In this document: piece by piece, positions 8,174-58,036 of the stretch
Layout: each line of letters opens with the position of its first letter
How positions within the stretch are numbered: the first letter of the stretch is position 1
From: Halorarum salinum
GTDB lineage: Archaea > Halobacteriota > Halobacteria > Halobacteriales > Haloferacaceae
Length of the DNA stretch: 64,000 nucleotides
NCBI RefSeq assembly: GCF_013402875.1
Contig: NZ_CP058579.1
Coordinates: 3,410,001-3,474,000 of the forward strand
Direction: 5' to 3'
The notes under the pieces: model-generated
Seen by the model: only the letters and a program-made list of their open reading frames with translations
Databases searched by the model: none
Told to the model about the DNA's origin: nothing
Translations under genes and position numbers: made by a program

Positions 8174-8209
8174 GTTTATTTTTACTAGCTAGAAAACCAA
8201 TCTCTGGTG

Positions 8210-9190
8210 TCAGCGATATCCGAGATCGCGAAGGTGTTCTTCGACCTCAATCGTTGTTTGCTCCTCAAAATCAATGTCAGGCTCCCGCGTATGCTCGTCC
8301 GTTGCAGTCGTCTCAACCCATGGCACTCTCCGGACGACTGGATGTGGGAATCCCTCCGGATGCCCATATGCGTGCCACTCACCAAACGCTTCACCGTGGT
8401 CCGACGTGATGACGACCTTCCCTGCGTCGATGTTCTCCAAGAGTTCTTCCACGTCATCGAGCACCCATCTAAGCGTCTCCAGATAGTCATTGTATACGTC
8501 TTCACAGGACGCCCTTCCTTCCTGAAGTAGTTCGTATCCTCGCTCCTCGCGTTCGGTCGCTTTCCGCCCCTCTCTAAACGCTGTGCCGACGTACGGCAGG
8601 TGCGGCTGAGTATAGTGCGTTATGATCCGCTCAGAATTGCCGCGCCGTCCTACTTCAATTGTGTAATCGGTCATCGGTTCTGGTAGGACTGACCCGTACG
8701 TCTCGTCGTGGTATGTCTCCCAGACAGCGATATGAGACTGGAACTCGTATTCGTAGACGACCGACCACGACGCGAGGTCGAGTGGTGTAGTGTTGTTCGC
8801 GGGTGGGAAGTGACGGCCGGCAAGGACGGCGTCACTATACCCGTTTCCGGAGATGTACGTCGTGCCTTTGATTTCCTCCTTCCAGGACTCAGTGAACGTG
8901 TTCGCTATCCATTCCGCTGATTGGCTTCCGACAGACCACTTGCTCTCTACCTCCTCGATGAAATCGTACTCGTCAGCCACCTCCCTAAGCGCATCGACGC
9001 GACAGGCGTCTAGCACGAGAAGCACGTCCCAATCGAACTCGTAGATGCCTTCTCCGACCGGCCAACGAGACGTAATCGCGTACCAAACAGTGAGATAGAC
9101 CGTGAATACAAGATATAGTGGAGCCTTGCTCGGTTGTTCCCGAAGGTGCTCCACCATCTCCGAGAACCAATCACCGAAAGTGACGCTCAT
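8210..9190 (-). CDS. alkaline-phosphatase-superfamily (sulfatase-like) protein, membrane-anchored
   Basis: 326 residues from ATG 9190 (a GTG one codon earlier is less likely). One hydrophobic segment near residues 23-40 (APLYLVFTVYLTVWYAITS) should anchor it. Metal-site motifs of the superfamily are present: WDVLLVLDACRVDALREV near residue 55 and VITSDHGEAFGEWHAYGHPE near residue 270. The usual nucleophile region reads WSVGSQSAEWIANTF, without C-x-P-x-R, so it is not a classical formylglycine sulfatase. It ends in LRDLGYR, a tail shared with the two other such proteins nearby. In haloarchaea these genes cluster with surface-glycan loci, so a role in adding or removing a phospho- or sulfo-group is plausible but unproven. 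Confidence 0.7.
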   Translation of the reverse strand: MSVTFGDWFSEMVEHLREQPSKAPLYLVFTVYLTVWYAITSRWPVGEGIYEFDWDVLLVLDACRVDALREVADEYDFIEEVESKWSVGSQSAEWIANTFTESWKEEIKGTTYISGNGYSDAVLAGRHFPPANNTTPLDLASWSVVYEYEFQSHIAVWETYHDETYGSVLPEPMTDYTIEVGRRGNSERIITHYTQPHLPYVGTAFREGRKATEREERGYELLQEGRASCEDVYNDYLETLRWVLDDVEELLENIDAGKVVITSDHGEAFGEWHAYGHPEGFPHPVVRRVPWVETTATDEHTREPDIDFEEQTTIEVEEHLRDLGYR

Positions 9191-9250
9191 CACATGTGCG
9201 TAACCAGTATCGTATTAAGAATTCTGTGATGTAGACACCACTTCCCGAGG

Positions 9251-10630
9251 TTAGAGATACCCAAGTTCCTCGAGTTGGGATTCGACATCATCTGTGAGTT
9301 CTTGCGTCCGTCTGTTTTCCTTCAGGTCCGCTATATCGACTGAGAAAACGTCGGTCGCTTCTGCCGGAATATCACCGACATTGATCTCGGCTTTCGAACC
9401 GTACCCACCGTCCCGACGTTCGAAGCGGTAGGCAGCACCGAGTGAGTCCCAGACATATTTCACTTCGTCGAGATATATGCATCTCGAAGACCGGTTCCAG
9501 TACTCTAATTGCTCGTGGTCAGTCGGTGGGTGTGCAACTCCAAGGCCTGCGACTTCCGCGGCCAGCGGTCGTTTTCTTTCGAAAGATTTCTCAGTCGCAA
9601 TTGCCGTTATGAGCTGTCCAAGATCAAGATGCGAGATATACTCAGACTCATTGATATCCAGCGTCGCGTTGACCACTTCGAGAGGGACATGTAGGAGTGG
9701 TTCGGTCATATCAGGCGTCACGTGACCGAAATACTGGTCCTGTTCGTCATCGCCGAGCTGTTCACCGTGGTCTGCGGTGACCACAACGGCCGTATCCTTG
9801 TCTACCGACTCGCAAAACTCAGCCACTCGACGCGATATATACTCCACTGCTGCCGAATATAGCTCACGATAAGCCTCTATTTCCCGGGTATGTTCGTCAA
9901 TAGTTCCATCCATGTTCATCCGAAGTGCGTTCAGGTTTGGCGTTATTCTTCGGCTCCGATCAGAAAGCAGCGATTGGTCGTACCCGTGGACATTCGTCAA
10001 CGGTCCATGAGCGTCCATGACGTTAACAAAGAGAAACGTAGAGTCATCAGACCGATTCAGTTCGCGCTTTGCGCGCTTCAGAATTCTGCTGCAACCGTCG
10101 TCAAACGGCTTCGCCACAGGGAGTTTCCGGAATAGATTCTCAGATTGGGAGCGAACACCATTGGCGATGCTCTTTGCGGGATGGTCGTGAACGAGACATG
10201 AACGAAGGAACTCGAAATACCGTTTGAACCCATTCATATCTGATTCATGCCAGAACTTCGAGGGAGACAACCCATCGGGGTGCGGCATTGAGGACGTAAT
10301 ATGGAAGAAGTCGTCGAACAACTCATCGAATCCGAAGATGGGGCTGGCGTACGGGTTTGCACTGATCCCTACGGTTCGATAGTCGCCCAGTTCCTGCAGA
10401 AACGTCTCCTCCGGATCTAGTGTGTCTAACTCCGGGGTTGCGGTGAGAAACCCGTGTCGGTGCGGGAGTGATCCGGTAAACATGCTCGCGTGGCTCGAAA
10501 CGCTCCACGTGCTTGCAGTCCGACACTCGTCGAACGAGTGGTCAGATCGGGCTTTGAGCCGAGTTCCGTACTGTTCGAAGTAGTCGTGTCGTACTGTATC
10601 GAGACAGATTAGCACGACATTCCGAGTCAT
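9251..10630 (-). CDS. sulfatase family protein (Ser at the nucleophile position)
   Basis: 459 residues. The N-terminal motif VVLICLDTVRHDYFEQYG supplies metal ligands. The nucleophile region reads TASTWSVSSHASMFTGSLPH; where sulfatases have Cys/Ser-x-P-x-R, here a Ser (or the neighbouring Thr-Trp-Ser) precedes S-H-A-S-M-F-T-G. VVVTADHGEQLGDDEQDQYF provides the remaining metal site. No signal peptide is obvious. The tail is QLEELGYL. A Ser/Thr nucleophile is also found in phosphotransferases of this superfamily, so the protein may transfer or hydrolyse a phosphate group on surface glycans rather than sulfate. It lies downstream of no obvious partner and is divergent from the GT4 gene at 10774. 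Confidence 0.75.
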   Translation of the reverse strand: MTRNVVLICLDTVRHDYFEQYGTRLKARSDHSFDECRTASTWSVSSHASMFTGSLPHRHGFLTATPELDTLDPEETFLQELGDYRTVGISANPYASPIFGFDELFDDFFHITSSMPHPDGLSPSKFWHESDMNGFKRYFEFLRSCLVHDHPAKSIANGVRSQSENLFRKLPVAKPFDDGCSRILKRAKRELNRSDDSTFLFVNVMDAHGPLTNVHGYDQSLLSDRSRRITPNLNALRMNMDGTIDEHTREIEAYRELYSAAVEYISRRVAEFCESVDKDTAVVVTADHGEQLGDDEQDQYFGHVTPDMTEPLLHVPLEVVNATLDINESEYISHLDLGQLITAIATEKSFERKRPLAAEVAGLGVAHPPTDHEQLEYWNRSSRCIYLDEVKYVWDSLGAAYRFERRDGGYGSKAEINVGDIPAEATDVFSVDIADLKENRRTQELTDDVESQLEELGYL

Positions 10631-10773
10631 TGATTAGAAGTTTCGGGAGGACGTTAAGTAGGTAGCGGTGGAAAGCGACCCAATTAGTTCGAAGCTTTCT
10701 TTCTCGACTACATACTAATCATTCTCGTGGGCTTCCGTGATACCTTTGGCAACGTGTGCAACATGAGTAGACA

Positions 10774-11979
10774 ATGAGTTGTGGTGACGATCTGTTCGAG
10801 AATCTGGCTATCGCGCACTGGGGTGAACACGTCAATGGTGGTGGGGATAGAGTTGCATGGGAACTGGCCCGTGTGTTCGAAAATGCACCGTTGTACGTCG
10901 GCTGGCAAGACGAGAGCATCGAACCGAACGACATCGAAACTGAACAGGTAATCAGCAGTCGACTACTTGAGTGGGCACTCCGAAGAGGTGGCGCTCTCCG
11001 CATGTTCGCACACCTCCTCGGTTGGCAAAAGGCCGAACCGCTTCGTGACTACGACGTTCTCGTCACGAGTGGCAACGAACCACTGTTCTATGTGCCGCCG
11101 ACTGAGCAAGTGTGGGTTTCCTACGTCCACCATACGAACCGCCGGCAGTCCGACCAGATCGACGAAGTGGAAGACGGACTCTTGGGTTCGCTCAAACTCC
11201 TGTTCTACTATCTCGTTCGCGTTGCATTCGACCACAACACGCACAAGCCGGACCTGTTCCTGGCGAACTCGGAGCAAGTCAAACGCCGGATGATCCGATA
11301 CTGGGGCGTCCCAGAAGAGAAAATCGACGTCGTCTATCCACCTGTCGACACGGACGCCTACTCGCCCGATGACGCCGAGACCGGCGACTACTACCTCACG
11401 CTCTCACGACTGGACTGGCACAAGAACGTTGGCGAAATTGTCAAGGGGTTCAACGAACTTTCAGACGCAACGCTCGTCGTTGCCGGTGACGGCCCGGACC
11501 GGGCCAAACTTGAGGCGATGGCCGGCACCAACATTGAATTCCGTGGCTACGTCAGCGAAGAGGAGAAGAAGGAGTTGCTCGCTGGTGCGAAAGCTTTCAT
11601 CTTTAACGGTAGAGACGAGGACTTCGGGATATCGCCCGTCGAAGCGCTCGCTGCTGGTACTCCACTGCTCGGCGTTAGGGAGGGGATGACCCAGTATCAG
11701 GTGATCGACGGGAAAAATGGGTACGCGCACGTTCGTGATGGTGAAACTGGTCGATCCATCTCCGAGGCAGTTCACGAGCTCGAAGCGGAGGGTGTCCAGT
11801 GGAACGATGATGAGATCGCAACGTTCGCTGATCGATTCTCCGTCAAGTTGTTCCACGTCCGGATCAATGAAGCTGTCAGGAAGGCAATCGATTCTGCAGA
11901 CACCACGCCAGAGTGGTATAACGATCTCCTACACGAGTTATCGACTCAGCCCGTGGAACGGGGATATACCGACGAATGA
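10774..11979 (+). CDS. GT4 family glycosyltransferase
   Basis: 401 residues with a GT-B fold. The N-terminal half has NGGGDRVAWELARVF (acceptor-side glycine loop) and WVSYVHHTNRRQSDQ. The C-terminal half starts near ANSEQVKRRMIRYWGVPEEK, with LSRLDWHKNVGEIVKGF and the nucleotide-sugar E-x7-E motif in DFGISPVEALAAGTPLLGVR. No membrane segment is seen, so it would act on the cytosolic face. It is the only plus-strand gene in the middle of this cluster, with a 143-base divergent region upstream of it. Composition is nearer the genome norm than its right-hand neighbours. Sugar donor and acceptor are unknown. Confidence 0.85.
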   Translation: MSCGDDLFENLAIAHWGEHVNGGGDRVAWELARVFENAPLYVGWQDESIEPNDIETEQVISSRLLEWALRRGGALRMFAHLLGWQKAEPLRDYDVLVTSGNEPLFYVPPTEQVWVSYVHHTNRRQSDQIDEVEDGLLGSLKLLFYYLVRVAFDHNTHKPDLFLANSEQVKRRMIRYWGVPEEKIDVVYPPVDTDAYSPDDAETGDYYLTLSRLDWHKNVGEIVKGFNELSDATLVVAGDGPDRAKLEAMAGTNIEFRGYVSEEEKKELLAGAKAFIFNGRDEDFGISPVEALAAGTPLLGVREGMTQYQVIDGKNGYAHVRDGETGRSISEAVHELEAEGVQWNDDEIATFADRFSVKLFHVRINEAVRKAIDSADTTPEWYNDLLHELSTQPVERGYTDE

Positions 11980-12015
11980 GTTCATGGAATCGTGGCCCCA
12001 CCGGACAAAGTTCCT

Positions 12016-12960
12016 CTACCGGATGTAGTTTTTAGCCAACGTCAAAAGTTGTCCGTTCCTGTCAATACCCAATAGTGCAATCACGAACATCGCCCACGAA
12101 ATCGGTCTCACTGGGTATCGGAGAATTGCGAGGGCCAGGTGTTGTAGAGCTTTCCAGCGATTTCCGTTTGATTCGTAGTCACGACCGATGACGTGGTGGT
12201 GGTAGGACAAGACTCGAGTCCTTGTGAGGAAGTCTTGATTGGCTACACGCTCCCGAACCTTCTCAAATACGGTCAAATCTCCCTGGATTCGACTGTCAAA
12301 GTTCTTTGAAATGCTGTCTGACTGCTCGCGTTTCTCAACAAGTAGGTCATCTACGTATCCAACGTCATAGTGCTCCGTGATTCGAATCCACAGGTCGTAG
12401 TCTTGTCTGCTTGAAAGCGAAGAATCGAATACCCCAACGCTGTCTAAACACTCTCGCCGAATCATCACCGTTGACGTCGGGTGGATACGGTCTCGCTCCA
12501 ACTCCTTCAGGTATATGTCCCCCGCTTCTTCTGGATGTCGCACCCACTCGGTTCCGTCAATCTCTTTTTGTACGAAGCCCGTATAGACCAATCCGAGTTC
12601 CTCGTTGCTCTCCTCAAACACGGCATACTGTTTTTCCAGCTTCGTCGGATGCCACACGTCATCTGCGTCCAGAAAAGCGATGTAAGTGCCGTGAGAAGCC
12701 TCAATACCCGTGTTTCGAGCTTCCGCTGCACCTTCGTTCACGTCGTGGACAATCAATCGTGCCCAGTCCCCGTACCGGTCAACGATTGGTTGGATATTTG
12801 TATCAGAGTTGTCGTCTACAACGATAGCTTCGAAATTGTTGAATGTCTGGGCGCGGACGCTGTCGAGTGCTTCGGTGAGGAGATCCGGTTGTTCGTAAAC
12901 TGGAATGACGATGCTTACTCCGAGGAAATTCAACGAACCGCTACCTAACTCTGTATTCAT
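12016..12960 (-). CDS. GT2 family glycosyltransferase
   Basis: 314 residues. GT-A core motifs: VSIVIPVYEQPDLLTEALDS at the N-terminus, AIVVDDNSDTNIQPIVDRYG, the donor-binding GAAEARNTGIEASHGTYIAF and the metal-binding LDADDVWHPTKLEKQY. A conserved acceptor segment SSLSSRQDYDLWIRITEHYD follows near residue 185. A weakly hydrophobic C-terminal stretch (PISWAMFVIALLGI) may associate with the membrane. Its stop lies 37 bases beyond the convergent GT4 gene. Codon use is more AT-rich than the flanking genome. The sugar transferred cannot be told from sequence. Confidence 0.85.
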   Translation of the reverse strand: MNTELGSGSLNFLGVSIVIPVYEQPDLLTEALDSVRAQTFNNFEAIVVDDNSDTNIQPIVDRYGDWARLIVHDVNEGAAEARNTGIEASHGTYIAFLDADDVWHPTKLEKQYAVFEESNEELGLVYTGFVQKEIDGTEWVRHPEEAGDIYLKELERDRIHPTSTVMIRRECLDSVGVFDSSLSSRQDYDLWIRITEHYDVGYVDDLLVEKREQSDSISKNFDSRIQGDLTVFEKVRERVANQDFLTRTRVLSYHHHVIGRDYESNGNRWKALQHLALAILRYPVRPISWAMFVIALLGIDRNGQLLTLAKNYIR

Positions 12961-13049
12961 TTAAAGCTCCAACTGATCAGATGGGTCTTCTCCACATAAT
13001 CAAGCGGCAGTACATTAGTTGAATACATTCCGGACATATTGACTACTAT

Positions 13050-14303
13050 CTATCTATATCCAAGATTCTCTAGGCGGCGTCGACGCTCAGCTTCTTCGAT
13101 ACCGATTGCATCACCTTTTGAATTCCGACACTCTGGTGAATTGAGTTTTTTGGCAAAATCCTTCCCATCTTCTGAAACCTCGCCATATTCGTCCTCGCTA
13201 CCGTCTCGTCGTATGAGGTATACACCGTCATTCTCTTTCAGGCGTTTGACCGTGTTCGAAACACTCACGACGTGCCGACCTGACTCCTCGCTGAGTGGGG
13301 TCGTGTGTTCTGGCGGATCAAGCGAGTGAGTTTCGAGCACGTCGGCGACGGTAGCTATTATGTCGCCATGGCCGACTACGTGGTTGAATACGTCGCCAGC
13401 GTCCTCTTGACCCGGATACTTCACCCAGAGAGGAGTGTGAACAGCCTCGTCATAGGGGTCGATATCCCAGGTATGGAACAGTTGGCCGTGTTCGCCGAAA
13501 TACTCGCCGTGATCAGAGACGACTACAATTAGCGCGTCATCATACCAATGCTGTTTTTTCATCCAGCTGAGTAAGTTCGAGAAGTATCTGTCGTAGTAGC
13601 GTACATTGGCGTCATAGAGCTCACGAGAAAGTCTGAGTTCACTCTCAGTGAGCGCACTGGCATCAGCGGCAGAAATTCGGTCTCTGATGTCTTCTAGCTC
13701 CTCAAGACTGGGTACGTCCTCCGGTGGGTCGATAGCCGTTTCAGGATGGTACGGTAAGTGGGGATCCATCCAATGACCCCAGATGAACTCGTTAGACTCG
13801 CCCTCAAGGGCGTTCTTAACCAATTTTGTCATCCCGTCAGCGGGCACGGAGGATAACGGGAGGGGGTCACGAAGATAGCGATTGTAGACGGTTTTCGCTA
13901 TCATCGACTCACGAACCACGGTGATTTTTTGTAATCGTCTCGCGACGCGGTCAACGAAGGAGATACCGCCTTTTCCGTCTATAGAGGGATTCTCATCGAA
14001 ATATGTAAATCCCTGGGCATAACCTCGGTCTTCGCGTAGGTATCCATTGTTCCCGTAGCCAGTTGACTCTCCGGGGATACCCTCAGCTAACGTGGTAGCG
14101 TCAGTTGGAATTTTTCCGTTGCCCTCAGGGTGAGTGCCGGCGATGATTCCCGGAAATGCAAACGGAGTCGCGACACCGTATGAATAGGCATTTTCGAATT
14201 TTGTATAATCTTTCTCAAGAATATTGAGTGACTCGCTTAGGCAATCAGGGGTTGCTCTATCTGCCCGGAGTGAGTCAACCGTGAGAAGAATCACGGAGTT
14301 CAT
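13050..14303 (-). CDS. sulfatase family protein with an atypical nucleophile region
   Basis: 417 residues from ATG 14303; the frame extends 38 codons upstream but the family N-terminus begins exactly at MNSVILLTVDSLRADRATPD, so the shorter start is chosen. Metal motifs: LTVDSLRAD and IVVVSDHGEYFGEHGQLFHT. The nucleophile region reads YGVATPFAFPGIIAGTHPEG. By eye the position that is Cys, Ser or Thr in relatives aligns with the Ala in FAFPG, so activity is doubtful or uses another residue. Tail: RRRLENLGYR, shared with the two other family members here. The presumed setting is a cytosolic or peripheral enzyme acting on glycan intermediates; no signal peptide is visible. Confidence 0.75.
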   Translation of the reverse strand: MNSVILLTVDSLRADRATPDCLSESLNILEKDYTKFENAYSYGVATPFAFPGIIAGTHPEGNGKIPTDATTLAEGIPGESTGYGNNGYLREDRGYAQGFTYFDENPSIDGKGGISFVDRVARRLQKITVVRESMIAKTVYNRYLRDPLPLSSVPADGMTKLVKNALEGESNEFIWGHWMDPHLPYHPETAIDPPEDVPSLEELEDIRDRISAADASALTESELRLSRELYDANVRYYDRYFSNLLSWMKKQHWYDDALIVVVSDHGEYFGEHGQLFHTWDIDPYDEAVHTPLWVKYPGQEDAGDVFNHVVGHGDIIATVADVLETHSLDPPEHTTPLSEESGRHVVSVSNTVKRLKENDGVYLIRRDGSEDEYGEVSEDGKDFAKKLNSPECRNSKGDAIGIEEAERRRRLENLGYR

Positions 14304-14541
14304 TGATACGGGTAAAGTTTGGCCCGGTCTAACAATTTTCGGTTCGCATCCGAGATGATTAGAAGAAGCTGTATGGTGTAAAGGTTCCAGAATTGTGTGC
14401 GTCCATGAGAATTGCATTGTGTCGGATTGAAGTGTTACAGAGATTTTTACTGCCAGATATAGTTTGTAGACATAGAACCAAGGTCAATTAGCGCCAACAG
14501 GCTATATACTCGGTGCAGAGCAACATAACTACCTGATCGCC
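14304..14541. other. AT-rich intergenic region, 238 bases
   Basis: No gene seen. It holds the upstream region of the sulfatase-like gene and the 3' flank of the GT4 gene. Markedly AT-rich relative to the rest of the window, in keeping with foreign origin of this part of the cluster. Confidence 0.4.
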
Positions 14542-15732
14542 TTACTTCAAAGTCTGGGTCGCCTGGAAAGTGTTTTCTAGTTTGCACACCTCTTTTTTGA
14601 TATTGAACTCTCTCGTAATTTTTCTAGATGCTGACTCCGCGTATGCATTCCATTTAAATTCGTCTTGTAGCAACTTAAGTAGAGCATCGGCTAATGCTTC
14701 CGCATTCTCTGGTTCAGTCAGAAGACCGTTTTGGCCGTGGTCAACCAATTCAGGAATTCCTGAAATAGATGTTGACACTGGTGGTGTCTTCATCGCCATT
14801 GCCTCCATGAGAGAAACAGGTATTCCATCTCTATCTCCTGAATTTGGAATTATACACGGTAATAAGTAACATCGGGCTTCGTCTAGCTCTATAATCAACC
14901 TTTGATCAGTAACCTTGTTTAGAAAGTCTACATTTTCCCCGATCCCGAGCTGTTCTACCTTTCGAATGAGTTCATCCTCCATTTCACCCGATCCAATGAT
15001 ATGGTATTCTAGTTCCGGTATCTCATCCGAAACCATTTCAACTGCCTCGAGCGCATATGGCAATCCTTTCTTCTCAACAAAGCGTGAGATTGTCAGAACC
15101 CTGTTTTGCTGTGAAGATTGTGTTGAGGCGAATTTCTCCGGTCGAATTCCAGCATGTATGACGTCTATCGGAGTATTCGATGTAAACCGATCTTGAATAT
15201 AACGTTTATTGTATTCTGAAATCGTCACAATTCTATCGGACTGTTGTAGTAATTGTTTGGTATATGTGCCAATCGGTTCCTTATAGAGATCGTATGCGTG
15301 GGTTGTTATCGTAAATGGCTCATTATAGTAATTTGACGCATATAATGCTCCGAATTTTGAAATAGTCGCGAAATGTGAATGGAAGTGTTCAGGATCCCAC
15401 TTAAGTGAATCCACGAATTCAATGCATTGCTTTGCTCGAAAGAAGTTTGCGGCATGGTCCAGTGGGGAGGCATAATAGAAGGAATCTTTGAACATTTGAA
15501 GATTCCACACTTTTTTGGAAAGAAGCTGTGTGATATCTTTATATGTTGGAGTCTTTACGTATGATATTGGAACGTTTAATTCGTCAAATTCATTGTGTTC
15601 AATTTTGCATTCTGGCTTCTGCAGAGCACATACCGCAACGTTATGGCCAAGTTGACTCAGTTCATAAATTTCGTTGAGGATAAAGCTCTCAGAGAGTTTC
15701 GGAAAATCATCAACATAATATACGATGTTCAT
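14542..15732 (-). CDS. GT4 family glycosyltransferase (colanic-acid-type), AT-rich
   Basis: 396 residues, GT-B fold. N-terminus YYVDDFPKLSESFILNEIYE matches the group of transferases that begin with F-P-x-x-S-E-T/S-F. Further motifs: FHSHFATISKFGALYAS, ITTHAYDLYKEPIGTY, VLTISRFVEKKGLPYALEA and the donor-site E-x7-E in RDGIPVSLMEAMAMKTPPV. It is Lys/Asn/Ile-rich and AT-rich, unlike the acidic GC-rich style of this genome, which points to horizontal transfer. It follows the pyruvyltransferase-family gene in the same direction and probably belongs to the same transcript. Specificity is unknown. Confidence 0.85.
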   Translation of the reverse strand: MNIVYYVDDFPKLSESFILNEIYELSQLGHNVAVCALQKPECKIEHNEFDELNVPISYVKTPTYKDITQLLSKKVWNLQMFKDSFYYASPLDHAANFFRAKQCIEFVDSLKWDPEHFHSHFATISKFGALYASNYYNEPFTITTHAYDLYKEPIGTYTKQLLQQSDRIVTISEYNKRYIQDRFTSNTPIDVIHAGIRPEKFASTQSSQQNRVLTISRFVEKKGLPYALEAVEMVSDEIPELEYHIIGSGEMEDELIRKVEQLGIGENVDFLNKVTDQRLIIELDEARCYLLPCIIPNSGDRDGIPVSLMEAMAMKTPPVSTSISGIPELVDHGQNGLLTEPENAEALADALLKLLQDEFKWNAYAESASRKITREFNIKKEVCKLENTFQATQTLK

Positions 15733-15830
15733 CTTGGGTATCTATTTATGGTGAGTTCATATATAAGGGACGGAATTATCTCAGTCATCACGAAGCCCAT
15801 AGGTTGATTTAGGATTAGATTCGCGAATTG

Positions 15831-17093
15831 CTAATTCAGATTCAAGTAGTCATGGATAACCTTTGCACTCTTTTTCGATTTGTCTCGAATATTAGGCAGA
15901 TTTGCTTCAATACTATCAGATATTACCCCACGGTTGCTGAGGGCATGCTCAACGGTCTTATATAACTCGTCTGGGGCAAGTCCATCAATATCGAGATAGT
16001 ACTCACTCATCTCAAATTGCGACATTAGCTCCTCAGTTTTAAACTGGTAGCCGATCGCGACAAATGGAGTGCCAGCCAGTATTGAGAGAATATTTGAGTG
16101 CATTCGAGTACCAATGTGGCAGTCAACAGTCTCATAGACTCCTACAAGTTGCTGAGGCGTATATTCCCCGGATAAGATATGCGTTTGTTCAATATTCGTA
16201 TCGTTCATCCGGTTTATTACTTGCTGTGCCGCAACACGGTCATCAGTATGGTAGCCAGCAAACCCTGTACAGGTAGACGCAAAGAGAATATCTGCGGAAC
16301 GATCCTCAATGAGCCTGTCCGCAACGTCAGCCACGGCCTGCATGTACTGGTTTTCCCCTCCTTCAGACTCAAAATGAGACCAGTTTCGGACTGATATGCT
16401 TACAACTGGCCCTGAGTCCGAATAAACCGGTTGATATTCTTCTCCAATTTTCTGTTCAATCGGCTTGTCCCCTTGGTTTAATGGCATCGAGAATGCTGCA
16501 TCAGTGAGTGCGTGAATAGGCGTCTCATTGACACCTAAAGCCTCCAGATTCCTTTTCGATTTCTCGTCTCTTGTTGTGATTAAATCAACGCTATTTAGCA
16601 CGCGTCGTGCGAGTCTATTATACGGTTTTCGGTCAAAAGGACCGAGGCTCTGAGCATAGAGAACAACTGGTTTCTCAAGAAGTTTCCCGAGCCAAAGTTC
16701 GGCAAGAACTCCTATTTTTGTCGGGAAGTAAATGTCCGTAATATATTGTCCACCGGTTGAGATGATGAGGTCCGCGTCATAGTATGGCTGTAGATCAAGT
16801 CTATCAATCATAATCGAGATAAATGGAAGTTTGTGGCCATGACGTTGAAGGGCTGCATCAAGTAGAATTGACGCGATCACGCCATTCTTTGGTAAATTGA
16901 AAACTTCAAATGGGACAAGACGCTGTGGAACAGCGTCTACGCCATGGATAAGATTGGCTGCATCCGGATACTCCGTCATAACGGTAATTGATGCATCCGG
17001 AAATTGCTCTTTGAGCGTTGCCAGTTCCCCTTCCAAAATAGCGGCATCTCCACGGTTTGATGCGCAATGATAGTCTGTTATGAGGATATCCAT
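15831..17093 (-). CDS. polysaccharide pyruvyl transferase family protein
   Basis: 420 residues from ATG 17093, where the domain begins (MDILITDYHCASNRGDAAIL). A GTG at 17126 would add 11 residues. The N-x-G-D motif typical of the family is present as SNRGDAAILEGEL. Later come LIISTGGQYITDIYF, LYAQSLGPFDRKPYNRLARR, ITTRDEKSKRNLEALG and the C-terminal ETVDCHIGTRMHSNILSILA with H-x-x-x-R-x-H, all matching the PS_pyruv_trans domain (CsaB/WcaK group). Such enzymes add ketal-linked pyruvate from phosphoenolpyruvate to sugars, giving the glycan a negative charge. AT-rich like its neighbours. Substrate is inferred to be a surface-glycan sugar. Confidence 0.85.
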   Translation of the reverse strand: MDILITDYHCASNRGDAAILEGELATLKEQFPDASITVMTEYPDAANLIHGVDAVPQRLVPFEVFNLPKNGVIASILLDAALQRHGHKLPFISIMIDRLDLQPYYDADLIISTGGQYITDIYFPTKIGVLAELWLGKLLEKPVVLYAQSLGPFDRKPYNRLARRVLNSVDLITTRDEKSKRNLEALGVNETPIHALTDAAFSMPLNQGDKPIEQKIGEEYQPVYSDSGPVVSISVRNWSHFESEGGENQYMQAVADVADRLIEDRSADILFASTCTGFAGYHTDDRVAAQQVINRMNDTNIEQTHILSGEYTPQQLVGVYETVDCHIGTRMHSNILSILAGTPFVAIGYQFKTEELMSQFEMSEYYLDIDGLAPDELYKTVEHALSNRGVISDSIEANLPNIRDKSKKSAKVIHDYLNLN

Positions 17094-17126
17094 TTCAGGG
17101 TACTGTGATCGTTTTTCAAGACTCAC

Positions 17127-17247
17127 TAATAAGATTGTCTTCTACTCAGAATCATCTTCCAAACGGACCCCATGAGCTAATATTTATGAGCGATGTTTAA
17201 GTATCCCATACAAATATTTAGGTTAATTGCTAACTAAGTATGTAGAT
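17127..17247. other. AT-rich intergenic spacer
   Basis: 121 bases with the sequence CTTATTAGTG (minus strand, about 17125-17134) as a possible TATA-like element for the pyruvyltransferase-family gene. Nothing else recognisable. Confidence 0.3.
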
Positions 17248-18675
17248 CTACTTGAAGCCAGGAACTGATACTACTCCAGGAAGGTTGTCCTCAACTGTCG
17301 TCCGGAACTCTTGGGAAAGTGCGAGTAGCGCCGCGAGGTATACGACTGCGCCAACACCGATGAGAACTAGGACGATGGGGAGGGAGTCTTCTATGGCAAC
17401 TCGCCCTACGAAAACCACCGCGGCCATGATCCCAGCGGCAAGCCATTGTTTGGTTATTTCCCCCACTGGAACAATCACGTCCATAATGTTTGTCGCGTAG
17501 TAGTATCCCAGCCCGAGACCCACCGCAGCTGAAGCAGTTGTCGCGGTCGCAGCACCGTACCAGCCGAATTGCGCGGTGAGGAGAATATTCAGAGTGAGGT
17601 TTATCGCCACGAACACAGCGTTGATGCGAAAGGTGAGATCGGGACGGTCGACCGCGTCAATCGTATTCATGAACTGGCTCTGATAGCCGTACAGGAGGCG
17701 GGCAAACGTGAGGACAAGCAAAATGTAGTACCCAGTCTCGAATCCAGATCCATAGACTGTCAATACGACGTCACCAACGAGAATAGCCCCGGCGAAACCA
17801 GGGATGATGATCAATCCTGTGTACGCCAGACTCACCCGCAACAGCCCTGAGACGTGTCCGTCGACGCCCCTTTCTGATGAAATCTTGCTCATCTCGGGAA
17901 AGAGTGTACGCGTGATAGACGATCCGAAGATGGCGAATAAAGAAGCAAGATTCCATGCTACTTCGTAGACACCAATTAGGCTGTTGGTGACAAAGAATGC
18001 CAAAATTATCGTATCCATCGAGAGAAACGTACGTCCTTTGACTGACGCGAGCCAAGAGAACTGCGCGTACGACCGAAGTTGTCGAAAGTCCTCACGAGTC
18101 GGAGTAGCATAGTCGACTGAAACTAAGCATGAGCCAATTACTATTGCGACAATCGCACCGACGACATAACCGGCGAACGCTCCAGCAATGCCGAAACCAG
18201 CCAACACTAACGTGACCTGAACGATACTTCGGATTGTCCATTCAACAGGTGAGAGAATACTTGAAACGTGTACGAGGTGTTGTCCTTGGAGAACGGCGCG
18301 TACCAGATTAACACCGAGGCTCACACCCAACATTACAATAAGTATTGAGGTCGCTTCAATCTCCATATACGAATTCAGGTATGGACGAGCGAACCAGAGA
18401 CAGATGGCTACAATGGCATAAAGCGCGATTTGAGCGAGAATCCCCGAGACGACAAAATTTCCCTCAGTGGCCTCACTTACTCGCTTTCTCACCGCCGCAG
18501 TGAGTCCTAAGTTTCCTGCAATAGCGGCCCACGCAAGCACAGACAGAACGACAACGTACGCCCCGTACTGCTCCTGCCCGAGGGTTCGCGTAAGAACGAT
18601 AGTTGCGAGGAACCCCGAGATCGACATTGCAAACTGCGAGAGAAAGCTTACCATCGAAGTTCGTCCGTATCTCAT
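17248..18675 (-). CDS. oligosaccharide flippase family protein (Wzx/AglR-like)
   Basis: 475 residues with about 14 hydrophobic helices spread over the full length, the pattern of the MATE/MOP-superfamily polysaccharide exporters. The N-terminal MRYGRTSMVSFLSQFAMSI followed by TIVLTRTLGQEQYGAYVV is the typical start (L-x-R-x-L-G-x-x-x-Y-G). It would move a dolichol-linked saccharide across the membrane before transfer to protein, as AglR is proposed to do in Haloferax volcanii. It is first in the minus-strand run of cluster genes and divergent from aglF, matching export of the glycan built by the neighbouring transferases. Substrate not determinable. Confidence 0.85.
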   Translation of the reverse strand: MRYGRTSMVSFLSQFAMSISGFLATIVLTRTLGQEQYGAYVVVLSVLAWAAIAGNLGLTAAVRKRVSEATEGNFVVSGILAQIALYAIVAICLWFARPYLNSYMEIEATSILIVMLGVSLGVNLVRAVLQGQHLVHVSSILSPVEWTIRSIVQVTLVLAGFGIAGAFAGYVVGAIVAIVIGSCLVSVDYATPTREDFRQLRSYAQFSWLASVKGRTFLSMDTIILAFFVTNSLIGVYEVAWNLASLFAIFGSSITRTLFPEMSKISSERGVDGHVSGLLRVSLAYTGLIIIPGFAGAILVGDVVLTVYGSGFETGYYILLVLTFARLLYGYQSQFMNTIDAVDRPDLTFRINAVFVAINLTLNILLTAQFGWYGAATATTASAAVGLGLGYYYATNIMDVIVPVGEITKQWLAAGIMAAVVFVGRVAIEDSLPIVLVLIGVGAVVYLAALLALSQEFRTTVEDNLPGVVSVPGFK

Positions 18676-18762
18676 CTGAAAGTCACCAAAGGTCGTGGCT
18701 ATGATTCGGTTTCCATTCCCACCGTATCAATACGACGCTTCGCCGCGAGATTACTCACTCTC

Positions 18763-18773
18763 AAAGTATTTAC
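18763..18773 (+). promoter_or_regulatory. TATA-like element of aglF
   Basis: AAAGTATTTAC about 28 bases before ATG 18798, consistent with a leaderless start. Confidence 0.55.
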
Positions 18774-18797
18774 CTCCCCAGTCAAGTCTCACGAACC

Positions 18798-19535
18798 ATG
18801 CAAGCTGTTGTCCTCGCCGCGGGGAAGGGCACGCGACTCCGCCCCCTAACAGACGACAAACCGAAGGGGATGGTCGAAGTCGCCGGCCAACCCATCCTCA
18901 CCCACTGCTTCGACGAACTCGTCGACCTCGGGGCCACCGAACTCATCGTCGTCGTCGGCTACAAGAAGCAGAACATCATCGAACACTACGGCGACGAGTA
19001 CGAGGGCGTCCCAATCACGTACGCCCACCAGCGCGAGCAGAAGGGCCTCGCCCACGCCCTCCTCACCGTCGAGGAGCACATCGACGACGACTTCATGCTC
19101 ATCCTCGGCGACAACGTCTTCCAGGCGAACCTCGCCGACGTCGTCCAGCGCCAGCAGGAGGACCGCGCGGACGCGGCGTTCCTCGTCGAGGAGGTCCCGT
19201 GGGACGAGGCCTCACGATACGGCGTCTGTGACACCAACAAGTACGGCGAGATCGTCGACGTCGTCGAGAAGCCCGAGGACCCGCCCTCCAACCTCGTCAT
19301 GACCGGCTTCTACACGTTCACGCCCGCCATCTTCCACGCCTGCCACCTCGTCCAGCCCTCCAACCGGAACGAGTACGAGATCTCGGACGCGGTCGGCCTG
19401 CTCATCGAGAGCGGGCGCACCATCGACGCCATCCCACTCGACGGTTGGCGCATGGACATCGGCTACCCCGAGGATAGGGACGAGGCCGAGCGGCGCCTCT
19501 CAGGGAAGGTCGAGGATGTTGAAGCGGACGCATAG
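18798..19535 (+). CDS. aglF: sugar-1-phosphate nucleotidyltransferase, AglF-like (UDP-glucose pyrophosphorylase)
   Basis: 245 residues. The N-terminal MQAVVLAAGKGTRLRPLTDD has the nucleotide-binding G-x-G-T-R-L-x-P-L-T signature, followed by KPKGMVEVAGQPILTH (sugar-phosphate Lys), LILGDNVFQ (metal Asp) and VVEKPEDPPSNLVMTGFYTF. It lacks the C-terminal acyltransferase repeat of GlmU-type enzymes. Size and motifs match Haloferax volcanii AglF (243 aa), which makes UDP-glucose from glucose-1-phosphate and UTP for the N-glycan pathway. With aglM at 44.2 kb it would supply UDP-glucuronate. Codon use returns to the GC-rich genome norm here. dTDP- rather than UDP-sugar synthesis is possible. Confidence 0.75.
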   Translation: MQAVVLAAGKGTRLRPLTDDKPKGMVEVAGQPILTHCFDELVDLGATELIVVVGYKKQNIIEHYGDEYEGVPITYAHQREQKGLAHALLTVEEHIDDDFMLILGDNVFQANLADVVQRQQEDRADAAFLVEEVPWDEASRYGVCDTNKYGEIVDVVEKPEDPPSNLVMTGFYTFTPAIFHACHLVQPSNRNEYEISDAVGLLIESGRTIDAIPLDGWRMDIGYPEDRDEAERRLSGKVEDVEADA

Positions 19536-54838: not shown

Positions 54839-54891
54839 CCGACCGCCGAAGGGGAGTCGTTCCCCTCACGACTCCCCTCACGCCGTTCGCC

Positions 54892-55437
54892 TCACCACAG
54901 TTCCCGCACGCGAGCGGGCCCTCCGACGTCGTCGAGCACGGCGACGACCGCGTCCGGCACGTCCTCCCGCCAGGAGTCGTCGCCCGCGGCCATCCGCCGG
55001 CGGATCGCGGTCCCGCTCACGGTTCGCTCGGCGCGGACCGTCCGCACCTCCCGTCCGTGCTCGCGCAGGCGGTCTGCCTTCACCTCGTGCCAGTCCTCCA
55101 GCACCCTGAGGAAGTGGACCGCGTCGGCGGGCGCGTAGTGCTCCCAGAGTTCGGGCCGGTTCACCGGGAACGGGAGCACGCGAACTGGAACGCCGAGGTC
55201 GGCGTCGGCGACGGCCGCCCGGACCGTCCGGTCGCGCTCGTGGTACCGGAAGGGGTTGTTCCGGGGCTCGCTGCGCTCCGGGTCGGCCGACTCGTCGCGG
55301 ACGTGCGAGGGATCGGCGTTCGTCACCCCGACGAGCAGTTCGTCGCACTCGCCGGCCGCCCACCGGAGGTACGCGAGGTGGCCCCCGTGGAACGGCTGGA
55401 AGCGCCCGTGGACGTGTCCGACGGTCCTCCGAGTCAC
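54892..55437 (-). CDS. nicotinamide-nucleotide adenylyltransferase-like nucleotidyltransferase
   Basis: 181 residues from GTG 55437. The nucleotidyltransferase H-x-G-H motif is in VGHVHGRFQPFHGGHLAYLR (~residues 7-26) and the second signature is TVSGTAIRRRMAAGDD (I/V-S-G-T-x-I-R). In between are VGVTNADPSHVRD and FRYHERDRTVRAAVADADLG. These match the archaeal NadM family, which makes NAD from NMN and ATP, but the insertion around residues 45-60 and the extra N-terminal G-H-V-H-G distinguish it from the canonical ~170-residue NadM, so it may be a paralogue acting on another nucleotide. Its start overlaps the stop of the SelD-like gene (GTGA), placing it last in a three-gene operon. Confidence 0.75.
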   Translation of the reverse strand: MTRRTVGHVHGRFQPFHGGHLAYLRWAAGECDELLVGVTNADPSHVRDESADPERSEPRNNPFRYHERDRTVRAAVADADLGVPVRVLPFPVNRPELWEHYAPADAVHFLRVLEDWHEVKADRLREHGREVRTVRAERTVSGTAIRRRMAAGDDSWREDVPDAVVAVLDDVGGPARVRELW

Positions 55438-56753
55438 GCGGAATCACGCTCCCCGGGCTCCCCGTCCCACCGCGCCGCGCGCTCGACGTACCGGGCGGCC
55501 TCGCACCCCGGTGCGGCGGACAGCCGCGGGCCGTCCCTGGCGATCGTCCCGAGTCGCCTCGGTCGGGAACCCGGTATCTCGCCCAGTCGGTCGGCCACCC
55601 GATCGAGGACGCCGGGCCTCGCGACGACCGCCAGCGGGCCGTTCGTCTCGACGGTGACGTCCGGCACGGTCCACGCGTCCGCGATCTCGTCGACGCCGGG
55701 GAGCGGCGGAAGCGCCTCGACCCGCAGGGACCGCCCGGCGTCGGCGACGACCCGCCCGATGCCCGCGACCCCCTCGCCGGACACGTCCGTGACGCGGGCG
55801 ACGTGGCGGTCGGGGTCGAACGGCTCGCCGGGATCGGGTCGGAACGGTGCCAGCGCCTCCGCGATCGGTCGCGTGTCGGTCCGAAGCCGTTCGAGTCCGC
55901 GCTCGCGAAACTCCCCGTCGTCGGATGCCACGCCGTGGGCGTAGAGCGCCAGCCCGCCGAGCGGGCGCGTGAGCAGGACCCCGAACCCGGGTTCGAGCGA
56001 GGGGGTAGCCGGCGCACGCAGCGCGACCGCGCGGACGCTCGCGCCGAACAGCCACCCCTCGCCGTCGTGTTCGACGGTCGCCGGCGGAAGCGCCGTCGCG
56101 TCCACCGGAACCGAGTCCGCCGCCCACGTCGCCACGGAGGCGTCCGCGGGTAGTTCACGGCGCGGTGCGGCGACGAGCGGTCGGACCTCGCGGTCGGCGA
56201 CGGCGCCGACGGCGTGGAGGTCGTTGCAGGCGTTCAGGATCGCGATCCGAAGCGACTCGGCGGGCGACAGCCCGGGGAAACCGTGGATCGCGTCGACGTT
56301 CGCCGCCAGCACGCCGTCGCGTCGCGGCCCCCGCGGGCGGAGGTGTTCGAGCCAGAGCGCACCGTCGTCGGCACCCGGAACCTGCACTGCGTGCCCCTTA
56401 CCGACCGTGACCGGCCGGCCGTCGAGGGCGGCGTACGCCTCGCCCACCGCCTCGGAGAACCGCTCGGGGTCCGCGAGTCGGTCGCCGGCGAACGCGGCGG
56501 CGAGGCTCCACGTCTCCCCGCCGTCCGTCGGCCCGGTCGGCGCTCGACCGTTCAGGGCCACCGCCTCGGCGTCCGACTCGATGCGGTCGTGTCGCGGGAG
56601 CAGGGCGGCGTCCCGGTCGGGGCCGAGCGACACCGACGTGTCCGAGAGTCGGGAGCGGATGCGCTCGCGGGCGGGGAGCACGACCCGGTCGAGCGGCGTC
56701 TTGCCCGCACAGCCGCACCGCACGGCGGCCTCGCGGTTCACTCCTCGGGCCAT
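55434..56753 (-). CDS. SelD/PurM-superfamily (AIR synthase-related) protein
   Basis: 439 residues from ATG 56753. N-terminal CGCAGKTPLDRVVLPARERI recalls the Cys/Lys segment of selenophosphate synthetase; then VSLGPDRDAALLPRHDRIES (D-A-A metal/phosphate turn), LAANVDAIHGFPGLSPAESL, ILNACNDLHAVGAVADREVR (N-D-L-x-A-x-G-A typical of PurM/SelD). The C-terminal half has LLTRPLGGLALYAHGVASDD and VTDVSGEGVAGIGRVVADAG. The fold binds ATP and transfers phosphate to an activated substrate. No other selenocysteine gene is seen, so a sulfur-related or unknown phosphorylation is likelier than selenium use. Start overlaps the preceding ApgM-like gene by 16 bases. Confidence 0.75.
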   Translation of the reverse strand: MARGVNREAAVRCGCAGKTPLDRVVLPARERIRSRLSDTSVSLGPDRDAALLPRHDRIESDAEAVALNGRAPTGPTDGGETWSLAAAFAGDRLADPERFSEAVGEAYAALDGRPVTVGKGHAVQVPGADDGALWLEHLRPRGPRRDGVLAANVDAIHGFPGLSPAESLRIAILNACNDLHAVGAVADREVRPLVAAPRRELPADASVATWAADSVPVDATALPPATVEHDGEGWLFGASVRAVALRAPATPSLEPGFGVLLTRPLGGLALYAHGVASDDGEFRERGLERLRTDTRPIAEALAPFRPDPGEPFDPDRHVARVTDVSGEGVAGIGRVVADAGRSLRVEALPPLPGVDEIADAWTVPDVTVETNGPLAVVARPGVLDRVADRLGEIPGSRPRRLGTIARDGPRLSAAPGCEAARYVERAARWDGEPGERDSA

Positions 56754-58036
56754 AGCGGTCGAACCTCCCGCGTCGGGTGGTCGGGAACTCGCGGCGACCG
56801 CCGGAGGCCGTCGAGCAGCACCCGGTCGGCCGCCGACCGTGCGATCCGGAGGAAGTCGCGTCCCCGAATGCGGCCCAGTCCGCCCCTCGCGGCGGGGCGC
56901 TCGCCCGTCGCGGTCACGTCGTCGGTCCGGACCGACTCGGCCGCCACCGTCAGCGGCACGGGCTCGCCCGAGTGGACCACGTCCTCGGTGCTCGGGGTCG
57001 TGTGGTCGGCCGTGACGACCGTGACGAGCCCCGGGTCGGAGAGGGCGCGCTCGACGACCGGGTCCAGCGACGCGTCGATGGCCTCGAGTTCGTCGCGCTT
57101 GGCCGCCGGGCCGGCCGAGTGGGATGTCTCGTCCGGCTCGGGGTAGTGGACGTGGACGAACTCGTGCGCCCCGACGGCCGCGAGCGCGGCGTCCGCCCGG
57201 GCGTCGTATCCCTCGGGCGGGTCCTCGTGGACGATGCCGAGAGTCCGCGCGAGTCCGGTCAGCACCGGCTTCGGCGTGAGACTCGCCGCGTCGAGGCCGT
57301 GTCGCTCGTGGAAGGGCTCGGGTTCGGTCGGAGCGCCCGCCCACTTGGAGAGTACCACGTCCGCGGGTGACCTCCCGGTTCGGTCGCGGGGTTCGCCGGC
57401 GTCGGCGAGCGCCTCGCGCGTTCGACGGGTGTACGTCCGGAGCGCAGACGCGGTTCGCTCGGCGGCGTCGGGGTCGGCGGCGTCCGCGAGCGGTTCGGCC
57501 GCGAGGACGGGCAAGCCCGTGGCGAACGGGTCCACGTCGGTCACGTCGGACGAGAGCGAGTTCGTCGATTCGACGGTCACCAGTCCGCGGTTCTTCCAGG
57601 TGTACTCGAACGAGACGGTCGCCTCCGCCGTCTCGACGCGCGCGACGTCCTCGCGCTCGGCCAGCGCCGGGAAGTCGGCGGCGTCGTCCGGGAGGTGACG
57701 GTCGACGACGCGGCCGCCGTCGAGTTCCGCGAAGGAGGCCGAGCAGACGACTCTCCCCGGGGTCGGGTCGCGGCCGAATCCTCTCGCCTCCAGCACGCCG
57801 CGACCCGGCACCTCCGCGAGGTCGTAGCCGAACAGGATCGAGTGGGCACGGTCGCTCGACAGGGGCGTCCCCGGCGTCGAGACGTCCATCCGGCCGTTGA
57901 TGCCCGCGGCCGCCAGGCGGTCGAGGTTCGGCGTGTCGGCCGCCTCCAGGGGCGTCTGCCCGTCCAGGGCCGGTGCCGGGCGGTCGGCCGCGCCGTCGAG
58001 CAGCAGCAGGAGGATCCGTCGGTCCTTCCCGCGCAT
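56738..58036 (-). CDS. alkaline-phosphatase-superfamily phosphoglycerate-mutase-like protein (ApgM family)
   Basis: 432 residues. N-terminal RRILLLLLDGAADRPAPALD (metal Asp in D-G-A/M-x-D), QTPLEAADTPNLDRLAAAGI (T-P/A-N-x-D-x-L-A) and TPLSSDRAHSILFGYD (nucleophile Ser in S-S-D) match the archaeal cofactor-independent phosphoglycerate mutase family. Later metal ligands: FVHVHYPEPDETSHSAGPAA and VTVVTADHTTPSTEDVVHSG. Active enzymes interconvert 3- and 2-phosphoglycerate. It is first in a minus-strand operon with the SelD-like and nucleotidyltransferase genes, which is unusual for a glycolytic gene, so another phosphotransfer may be involved. Confidence 0.8.
   Translation of the reverse strand: MRGKDRRILLLLLDGAADRPAPALDGQTPLEAADTPNLDRLAAAGINGRMDVSTPGTPLSSDRAHSILFGYDLAEVPGRGVLEARGFGRDPTPGRVVCSASFAELDGGRVVDRHLPDDAADFPALAEREDVARVETAEATVSFEYTWKNRGLVTVESTNSLSSDVTDVDPFATGLPVLAAEPLADAADPDAAERTASALRTYTRRTREALADAGEPRDRTGRSPADVVLSKWAGAPTEPEPFHERHGLDAASLTPKPVLTGLARTLGIVHEDPPEGYDARADAALAAVGAHEFVHVHYPEPDETSHSAGPAAKRDELEAIDASLDPVVERALSDPGLVTVVTADHTTPSTEDVVHSGEPVPLTVAAESVRTDDVTATGERPAARGGLGRIRGRDFLRIARSAADRVLLDGLRRSPRVPDHPTREVRPLWPEE

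What the first reader, a model, noticed from the sequence alone, without database searches (positions are those of the whole stretch)
54892..58036. Overlapping operon of ApgM-like, SelD/PurM-like and NMN-adenylyltransferase-like genes
Three phosphate-chemistry enzymes overlap by 16 and 4 bases, so they are made together. None of the usual partners (selenium, purine or NAD synthesis genes) are nearby. The SelD-like protein keeps a Cys-Gly-Cys...Lys N-terminus. This may be an undescribed pathway making a nucleotide-linked or thio/phosphorylated cofactor.
Basis: partly seen in the sequence, partly recalled or inferred. Interest (0 to 1): 0.55.

Follow-up and report, generated by a model that had tools for sequence, protein, structure and literature searches.

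The report
SelD-linked four-enzyme operon shared across domains
A salt-loving archaeon carries four side-by-side enzyme genes, one related to the enzyme that makes activated selenium, and the same four enzyme types sit together in soil bacteria (Rhodococcus), which points to an uncharacterised selenium- or sulfur-phosphate pathway.

Summary
The triplet is real and conserved, and it is really a quartet. In 14 haloarchaeal genomes the SelD-like gene is always followed by the NMNAT-like gene; an aPGM-like gene lies upstream in 11, plus one where a contig end splits it off. A fourth gene, an acyl-CoA-dehydrogenase-fold (ACAD) protein, precedes aPGM wherever aPGM occurs. The same four enzyme types form one operon on 5 Rhodococcus plasmids, there with a true SelD. 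Among 72,556 plasmids, the Rhodococcus ACAD, aPGM-like and NMNAT-like proteins match the haloarchaeal operon copies best outside Rhodococcus. SelD-like, NMNAT-like and aPGM-like fall below the curated cut-offs of their nearest families. The ACADs lack the usual catalytic Glu; the aPGMs keep metal ligands but lose mutase motifs; all 14 genomes have a separate canonical NadM. Best reading: SelD (or SelD-like) makes seleno- or thiophosphate, the NMNAT-like enzyme nucleotidylates it or a derivative, and the aPGM-like and ACAD-like enzymes complete an unknown small molecule. Element, nucleotide and product are not shown. Ten paper searches found no description.

The parts
   Evidence: Pfam PF00441/PF02770/PF02771; upstream of aPGM in 12 of 12 haloarchaeal genomes with the aPGM; 44% identical to the Rhodococcus operon ACAD; tree 99/98; motif
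56738..58036 (-). aPGM-like (AlkP superfamily, PF01676/PF10143) phosphotransferase, 432 aa; metal ligands and Ser nucleophile kept, phosphoglycerate-mutase motifs lost
   Evidence: 35% identical to the Rhodococcus operon AlkP
55434..56753 (-). SelD-like protein of the PurM/SelD/HypE fold, 439 aa (alternative start GTG 56741)
56700..56717 (-). codons of C13-G-C15-A-G-K18, the Cys-x-x-Lys motif; C13, C15 and K18 invariant in 12 of 12 aligned homologues
   Evidence: motif importance from PMC4210487 (section 6 read)
54892..55437 (-). NMNAT-like nucleotidyltransferase (PF01467), 181 aa, with an about 14-residue insert and W116/K120 not found in canonical NadM
   Evidence: 41% identical to the Rhodococcus operon enzyme
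56738..56753 (-). aPGM-like / SelD-like gene overlap (16 bases with the ATG start, 4 with GTG 56741)
55434..55437 (-). SelD-like / NMNAT-like gene overlap (4 bases)

Best explanation
A four-enzyme operon for a dedicated, uncharacterised pathway. SelD-like (in Rhodococcus, true SelD) uses ATP to make a chalcogen-phosphate (selenophosphate, or thiophosphate in haloarchaea). The NMNAT-like enzyme transfers a nucleotidyl group from an NTP to this compound or a direct product of it. The aPGM-like metalloenzyme then transfers or removes a phosphoryl-type group, and the ACAD-fold flavoprotein does a redox step on an anionic intermediate. Shown here: the gene linkage in two domains of life, shared operon-specific residues, kept catalytic residues in SelD-like, NMNAT-like and aPGM-like, loss of the usual ACAD Glu and of the mutase motifs. 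Inferred: every substrate, the order of steps, the element, and that the product is a small molecule.
For: SelD-like and NMNAT-like adjacent in 14 of 14 haloarchaeal genomes and selD next to NMNAT-like in 5 of 5 Rhodococcus operons, even where aPGM and the operon ACAD are absent (G123, G176), so these two form the core. Cross-domain matches: of 777 plasmid records with the ACAD at E<=1e-30, the first 11 rows are the 5 Rhodococcus and 6 Halobaculum operon copies (41% or more, next 36%); aPGM-like: 6 Halobaculum operon copies (32-35%) come before all other genera (30% or less); NMNAT-like: Halobaculum/Halorussus operon copies come next after Rhodococcus. Trees: ACAD operon clade 99/98, aPGM operon clade SH-aLRT 99. 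Cys-x-x-Lys and Asp positions kept; hhalign to true SelD 97.6%. A true SelD (371.6 bits, cut-off 125) fills this slot in Rhodococcus. No SelU at E<=1e-5 and no SelD over cut-off in 14 genomes. A bona fide NF038049 relative (30% identity) sits beside rhodanese and TusA-like genes.
Against: No substrate or product evidence. SelD-like is below the cut-off of both SelD families and its direct BLASTP match to Rhodococcus SelD is insignificant. The model is mediocre (pLDDT 62) and VIA-align ties HypE (Z 15.9) with SelD (15.5). In the NMNAT tree Rhodococcus groups with PPS-linked relatives, not with the haloarchaeal copies. In Halobaculum halobium the operon is flanked by an ABC importer, a KAS III-like gene and a 2-oxoacid dehydrogenase, which could mean catabolism.
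Confidence: 0.45

Rival explanations
1. A catabolic operon: the dikinase-fold SelD-like enzyme phosphorylates an imported organic compound (not selenide or sulfide), the NMNAT-like and aPGM-like enzymes process the phosphorylated intermediate, and the ACAD oxidises a CoA-type derivative.
For: In Halobaculum halobium the operon lies next to a Liv-type ABC importer, a KAS III-like gene and a 2-oxoacid dehydrogenase; KAS III-like and importer genes are near it in 6 of 8 Halobaculum loci by my gene calls. In Rhodococcus it follows a TetR regulator and, further up, a carbon-nitrogen hydrolase.
Against: These neighbours are not seen in the window, in L025, L026 or in Halorientalis. Cys-x-x-Lys is invariant and Rhodococcus has a true SelD. 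The ACAD lacks the usual catalytic Glu.
Confidence: 0.2
2. A nucleotide-analogue (antimicrobial or defence-type) pathway: the nucleotidyltransferase subfamily builds an unusual nucleotide from a dikinase product, with SelD-type or PEP-synthase-type dikinases as interchangeable partners.
For: NMNAT-like relatives on 4 other plasmids lie beside PPDK_N (water/phosphate dikinase) proteins, two of them near viperin-like radical SAM proteins. The two haloarchaeal variants without ACAD/aPGM carry adenylate-kinase-like genes, one also a MATE exporter.
Against: PADLOC gives no hit for the SelD-like, NMNAT-like or aPGM-like protein. The PPS-type modules have other partners and the tree grouping rests on long branches.
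Confidence: 0.15
3. SelD-like is not a chalcogen kinase in haloarchaea: the Cys pair has another role and the enzyme phosphorylates another small molecule, as ThiL or PurM do.
For: Scores under both SelD cut-offs; structural tie with HypE; about 100 extra residues between the first two Asp positions; the residue aligned with E. coli Asn87 is not Asn in several homologues.
Against: Cys-x-x-Lys invariant; the true SelD in the same slot of the Rhodococcus operon.
Confidence: 0.15
4. Three ordinary paralogues (glycolytic PGM, NAD synthesis, selenium supply) that happen to be neighbours.
For: Family resemblance to aPGM, NadM and SelD.
Against: Conserved linkage in two domains; canonical NadM present in 14 of 14 genomes; mutase motifs lost; no SelU or SelD over cut-off.
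Confidence: 0.03

Closest known systems
SelD-like family of Sulfolobales/Thermoproteales (NF038049; Li et al. 2014, PMC4210487)
   Same: Closest sequence relatives of the SelD-like protein: 30% identity over the length to a bona fide member, same extra GKGH-containing region, same Cys-x-x-Lys.
   Different: 84-205 bits against a cut-off of 250 in six haloarchaeal proteins scored. No TusA, rhodanese or acylphosphatase neighbour seen; partners are NMNAT-like, aPGM-like and ACAD-like. The paper reported the family only from two crenarchaeal orders.
Selenophosphate synthetase SelD and orphan-SelD traits (Se-dependent Mo hydroxylases, PMC2276186/PMC2432076; unexplained orphan SelDs, PMC5029168; sen cluster, PMC9814287)
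   Same: The Rhodococcus operon has a true SelD in the same slot; genes overlapping selD are the hallmark by which the sen cluster was found (PMC9814287).
   Different: The other three genes (ACAD, NMNAT-like, aPGM-like) are not the candidates named in the passages of these papers that I read.
PhpF/PhpG of phosphinothricin biosynthesis (PhpG = NF038358; that PhpF is NMNAT-like is recalled, from no call)
   Same: Similar chemistry by analogy: an NMNAT-like enzyme makes a CMP-activated phosphonate, an aPGM-like enzyme transfers it.
   Different: aPGM-likes score 171-184 bits against the PhpG cut-off of 545 and higher with apgM; no phosphonate gene was noticed in the operon.
Archaeal NMN adenylyltransferase NadM (TIGR01527)
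   Same: Same fold: the top 13 Foldseek hits are archaeal NMNATs.
   Different: 72.6 bits against 181.2; insert and W116/K120 absent from 14 NadM rows.

Membership tests
SelD (TIGR00476) | score over the curated cut-off (125 bits) | tested here: not met
   22.8 bits for the window protein; 0 of 14 genomes over cut-off. Met by the Rhodococcus operon SelD, 371.6 bits
SelD (TIGR00476) | Cys-x-x-Lys active-site motif | tested here: met
   C15..K18, invariant in 12 of 12 aligned
SelD (TIGR00476) | four metal-binding Asp | tested here: met
   window D48, D154, D178, D323 by alignment; the first is Glu in 1 of 12 rows (L028); position equivalence partly by eye
SelD (TIGR00476) | fold closest to SelD rather than HypE/ThiL/PurM | tested here: inconclusive
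   Foldseek ranks SelD first, VIA-align ties HypE 15.9 and SelD 15.5; model pLDDT 62
SelD-like sulfur family NF038049 | score over the curated cut-off (250 bits) | tested here: not met
   128.2; 84.1-204.6 in five other haloarchaeal proteins
SelD-like sulfur family NF038049 | sulfur-transfer neighbours (TusA/SirA, rhodanese) | tested here: not met
   none seen by eye around the haloarchaeal loci; present beside the bona fide member L057
NadM (TIGR01527) | score over the curated cut-off (181.2 bits) | tested here: not met
   72.6 bits; operon copies in all 14 genomes below it, canonical copy above it in 14 of 14
NadM (TIGR01527) | NMN adenylyltransferase activity | not testable with these tools
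   -
aPGM (TIGR00306) | score over the curated cut-off (320 bits) | tested here: not met
   253.6 bits; Rhodococcus 244.9
aPGM (TIGR00306) | AlkP-type metal ligands | tested here: met
   D14, D302, H306, D344, H345, H355 invariant in 40 of 40 rows; ligand roles recalled
aPGM (TIGR00306) | mutase-type motifs (RCN, N211, GATGxxxTN region) | tested here: not met
   columns invariant in 27 other rows are changed in all 13 operon rows; substrate role of these motifs is inferred
PhpG (NF038358) | score over the curated cut-off (545 bits) | tested here: not met
   171.5 bits, 184.1 bits Rhodococcus
Acyl-CoA dehydrogenase | three-domain ACAD architecture | tested here: met
   PF02771, PF02770, PF00441 over cut-off
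Acyl-CoA dehydrogenase | catalytic Glu in the YEGT motif | tested here: not met
   Ala in 12 haloarchaeal and 2 Rhodococcus operon ACADs; another position for the base not excluded
sen (selenoneine) cluster | SenA and SenB beside SelD | not tested
   no SenA/SenB search was run; none of the four operon proteins was named so by NCBIfam

The most novel reading that the evidence does not exclude
A new SelD-dependent trait shared by archaea and bacteria: a seleno- (or thio-) phosphate is nucleotidylated by a dedicated NMNAT-like enzyme to give a nucleoside diphosphate analogue with Se or S, from which an aPGM-derived transferase and an ACAD-fold flavoenzyme without the usual base build an unknown selenium- or sulfur-containing metabolite. 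It would be one answer to what some orphan SelDs do.
Probability: 0.3. Interest if true: 0.85.

Novelty: new variant of a known kind. Interest (0 to 1): 0.6.

Why it matters
Orphan SelDs without a known use are an open question (PMC5029168, section 12 read). Here a SelD slot is tied, in two domains of life, to the same three enzyme types, two of which (ACAD, aPGM-like) carry operon-specific changes shared by archaeal and bacterial copies. That gives four concrete proteins to express, named culturable hosts (Halobaculum, Halorientalis, Rhodococcus) and a clear labelling test for a new selenium or thiophosphate metabolite.

Tried and rejected
NAD synthesis, glycolysis and the tested known selenium routes were considered and put aside: canonical NadM in 14 of 14 genomes, no SelU at E<=1e-5 and no SelD over cut-off, mutase motifs lost. 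SelA/SelB were not searched. Reading the genes as PhpF/PhpG members was put aside on PhpG scores. Defence: no PADLOC hit for the SelD-like, NMNAT-like and aPGM-like proteins. PHROGs gave only weak cytidylyltransferase-type hits for NMNAT-like and one for ACAD. A viral-contig scan with the Rhodococcus NMNAT-like protein found no relative. Bacterial chromosomes could not be reached: the single genome-contig scan found 4 haloarchaeal loci, two of them contigs already held (same lengths as G294:C2 and G063:C10). Ten paper searches found no description of the operon; the library lacks most subscription papers, and supplements were not read.

Rows dropped before counts: 3 of 38 ACAD rows (three further L108 ACADs) before the ACAD tree; 1 of 41 aPGM rows (L143, stops in my extraction) before the aPGM tree and residue counts. 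The ACAD signature used 8 of 21 non-operon rows. The comparison rows were chosen by similarity, not at random. A first extraction read six ACAD loci on the wrong strand and was redone; the motif rows for those loci are void. The hypergeometric value ignores relatedness of genomes and is not used as evidence.
Full report
What is there. The three reported ORFs are real, on the minus strand, at the stated coordinates, with overlaps of 16 and 4 bases; the SelD-like gene also has a GTG start at 56741 that would give a 4-base overlap, and the relative G312 has an ATG there. Third-position GC is 0.89-0.92. In a gene call of the whole window, read by eye, I saw no selenium, purine or NAD synthesis gene.

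A fourth gene. An acyl-CoA-dehydrogenase-fold (ACAD) gene at 59346-58084 lies 47 bases upstream of the aPGM-like gene. It precedes aPGM in all 12 haloarchaeal genomes that have the aPGM: 10 from the class search, Halorientalis marina and the MAG QS_5_70_17, where ACAD (72.6% identity) and aPGM run off one contig end and SelD-like plus NMNAT-like start at another.

Distribution. The SelD-like protein was found in 12 of 391 Halobacteria genomes, 4 of 86 genera; one same-genus genome (G026) lacks it. A genome-contig scan added Halorientalis marina and the MAG, so 14 genomes. SelD-like and NMNAT-like are adjacent in 14 of 14. aPGM-like is directly upstream in 11 of 14, on another contig end in 1, and not found in the genome in 2 (G123, G176). 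The aPGM-like protein was found in 10 of 391 Halobacteria genomes, all among the 12 with SelD-like. In plasmid records, six Halobaculum and one Halorussus plasmid carry the SelD-like gene.

Across domains. Of 16 plasmid records matching the NMNAT-like protein, 5 are Rhodococcus records where it overlaps a gene annotated selD. All five have ACAD, selD, NMNAT-like and an AlkP-type gene in that order, with a TetR gene before; in strain GD02 the last gene is shortened beside an IS3 element (match covers 376 of 444 residues). Identities between window and Rhodococcus: ACAD 44%, NMNAT-like 41%, aPGM-like 35%; the SelDs do not match significantly by BLASTP (E 0.021). The Rhodococcus SelD is a true SelD, 371.6 bits against 125. 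Searching 72,556 plasmid records, the Rhodococcus ACAD matches 777 records at E<=1e-30 and the first 11 rows are the 5 Rhodococcus and 6 Halobaculum operon copies (41% identity or more; next 36%). The AlkP/aPGM protein matches 18 records: 5 Rhodococcus operons, 6 Halobaculum (32-35%), 6 others (30% or less), and a 52-residue Rhodococcus fragment. The NMNAT-like protein matches 17 records, with Halobaculum and Halorussus operon copies next after Rhodococcus.

Trees. Operon ACADs of haloarchaea (12) and Rhodococcus (2) form one side of a branch against 21 others, support 99/98. Operon aPGMs (11 and 2) split from 27 others with SH-aLRT 99. The NMNAT-like tree separates operon copies plus PPS-linked relatives from 14 canonical NadM (SH-aLRT 100), but places Rhodococcus with the PPS-linked group (95), on long branches: this is against a simple four-gene transfer.

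Active sites. SelD-like: C13, C15, K18, GKxH, and the Asp positions are invariant or nearly so in 12 aligned proteins; L028 has Glu for the first Asp, and the residue at the place of E. coli Asn87 varies. hhalign to three true SelDs gives 97.6% over the C-terminal part; a bona fide NF038049 protein is 30% identical over the length. The model (pLDDT 62, pTM 0.66) matches SelD best in Foldseek and ties HypE and SelD in VIA-align. NMNAT-like: the model (pLDDT 84) is closest to archaeal NMNAT; R55, P103, W116 and K120 are in all 20 operon and PPS-linked rows and in none of 14 NadM, and an insert of about 14 residues is shared. aPGM-like: metal ligands are invariant in 40 of 40 rows, while RCN, N211 and the GATGxxxTN region are changed in all 13 operon rows. 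ACAD: the YEGT Glu is Ala in all 14 operon rows, and W269, W272, R273, R277, G279, M280 and N398 are invariant in these and absent from 8 compared ACADs.

What it probably does. SelD slot and NMNAT-like gene are the constant core, so the simplest idea is that the nucleotidyltransferase acts on the SelD product or its next derivative. Whether the element is selenium or sulfur is open: Rhodococcus has a true SelD; the haloarchaeal protein is nearest to a family proposed to make thiophosphate (Li et al. 2014, PMC4210487: abstract and sections 6 and 7 read), reported there only from Sulfolobales and Thermoproteales. None of the 14 genomes has SelU at E<=1e-5 or SelD over cut-off; SelA and SelB were not searched. 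The analogy to PhpF/PhpG (CMP-activated phosphonate and its transfer by an aPGM-like enzyme) comes from the NF038358 title and recall; the scores do not make these proteins PhpG.

Variants. G123 and Halorussus salilacus lack the aPGM and the operon ACAD and instead have an adenylate-kinase-like gene (56% identical to each other) and a protein of about 630 residues without Pfam match (26%). Other NMNAT-like relatives pair with PPDK_N proteins, another ATP-consuming dikinase type, two of them near viperin-like proteins. A common rule, dikinase product then nucleotidylation, is my inference.

Literature. Orphan SelDs are described in PMC2276186 (abstract read), PMC2432076 (passages), PMC5029168 (section 12 and passages: 26 organisms, candidates isochorismatase-like, ABC ATPase, cysteine desulfurase-like), PMC9312934 (passages) and the sen cluster in PMC9814287 (whole text). 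None of what I read names this gene set; searches are listed under Tried and rejected.

Verdict. The function is unproven; a SelD-linked nucleotide-activated seleno- or thiophosphate pathway is the best-supported reading.

Noticed in passing
L095, L096, L097, L098 (plasmids of Rhodococcus opacus, Enterococcus gilvus, Treponema saccharophilum, R. pyridinivorans): Relatives of the NMNAT-like protein lie directly before a PPDK_N (PEP-synthase-type dikinase) gene; viperin-like radical SAM genes are nearby in L095 and L097, a cysteine-desulfurase-like gene in L097.
   Followed up: partly
L028 10813-13548 and L099 10621-24036: SelD-like/NMNAT-like variants without ACAD and aPGM carry an adenylate-kinase-like gene and a no-Pfam protein of about 630 aa; the Halorussus plasmid region also has a DHH-DHHA2 protein, a methyltransferase, a glycosyltransferase and a MATE exporter.
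   Followed up: partly
L098 8211-9137 and L030 10950-11921: A DHH-DHHA2 protein lies close downstream of the NMNAT-like gene in both an actinobacterial plasmid (two genes on, after PPDK_N) and a haloarchaeal plasmid (next gene).
   Followed up: no
54850-54878: Perfect 11-base inverted repeat (aggggagtcgt, 7-base loop, acgactcccct) between the convergent mutL and NMNAT-like genes; possible terminator (read).
   Followed up: no
L158 4780-19001: In Halobaculum halobium the operon is flanked by a 2-oxoacid dehydrogenase set on one side and a KAS III-like gene plus Liv-type ABC importer on the other.
   Followed up: partly
8174-18869: Stretch of the window with no gene called by my codon-usage model trained on nearby genes, between a glycosyltransferase and a nucleotidyltransferase gene; probably a region of other composition.
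   Followed up: no
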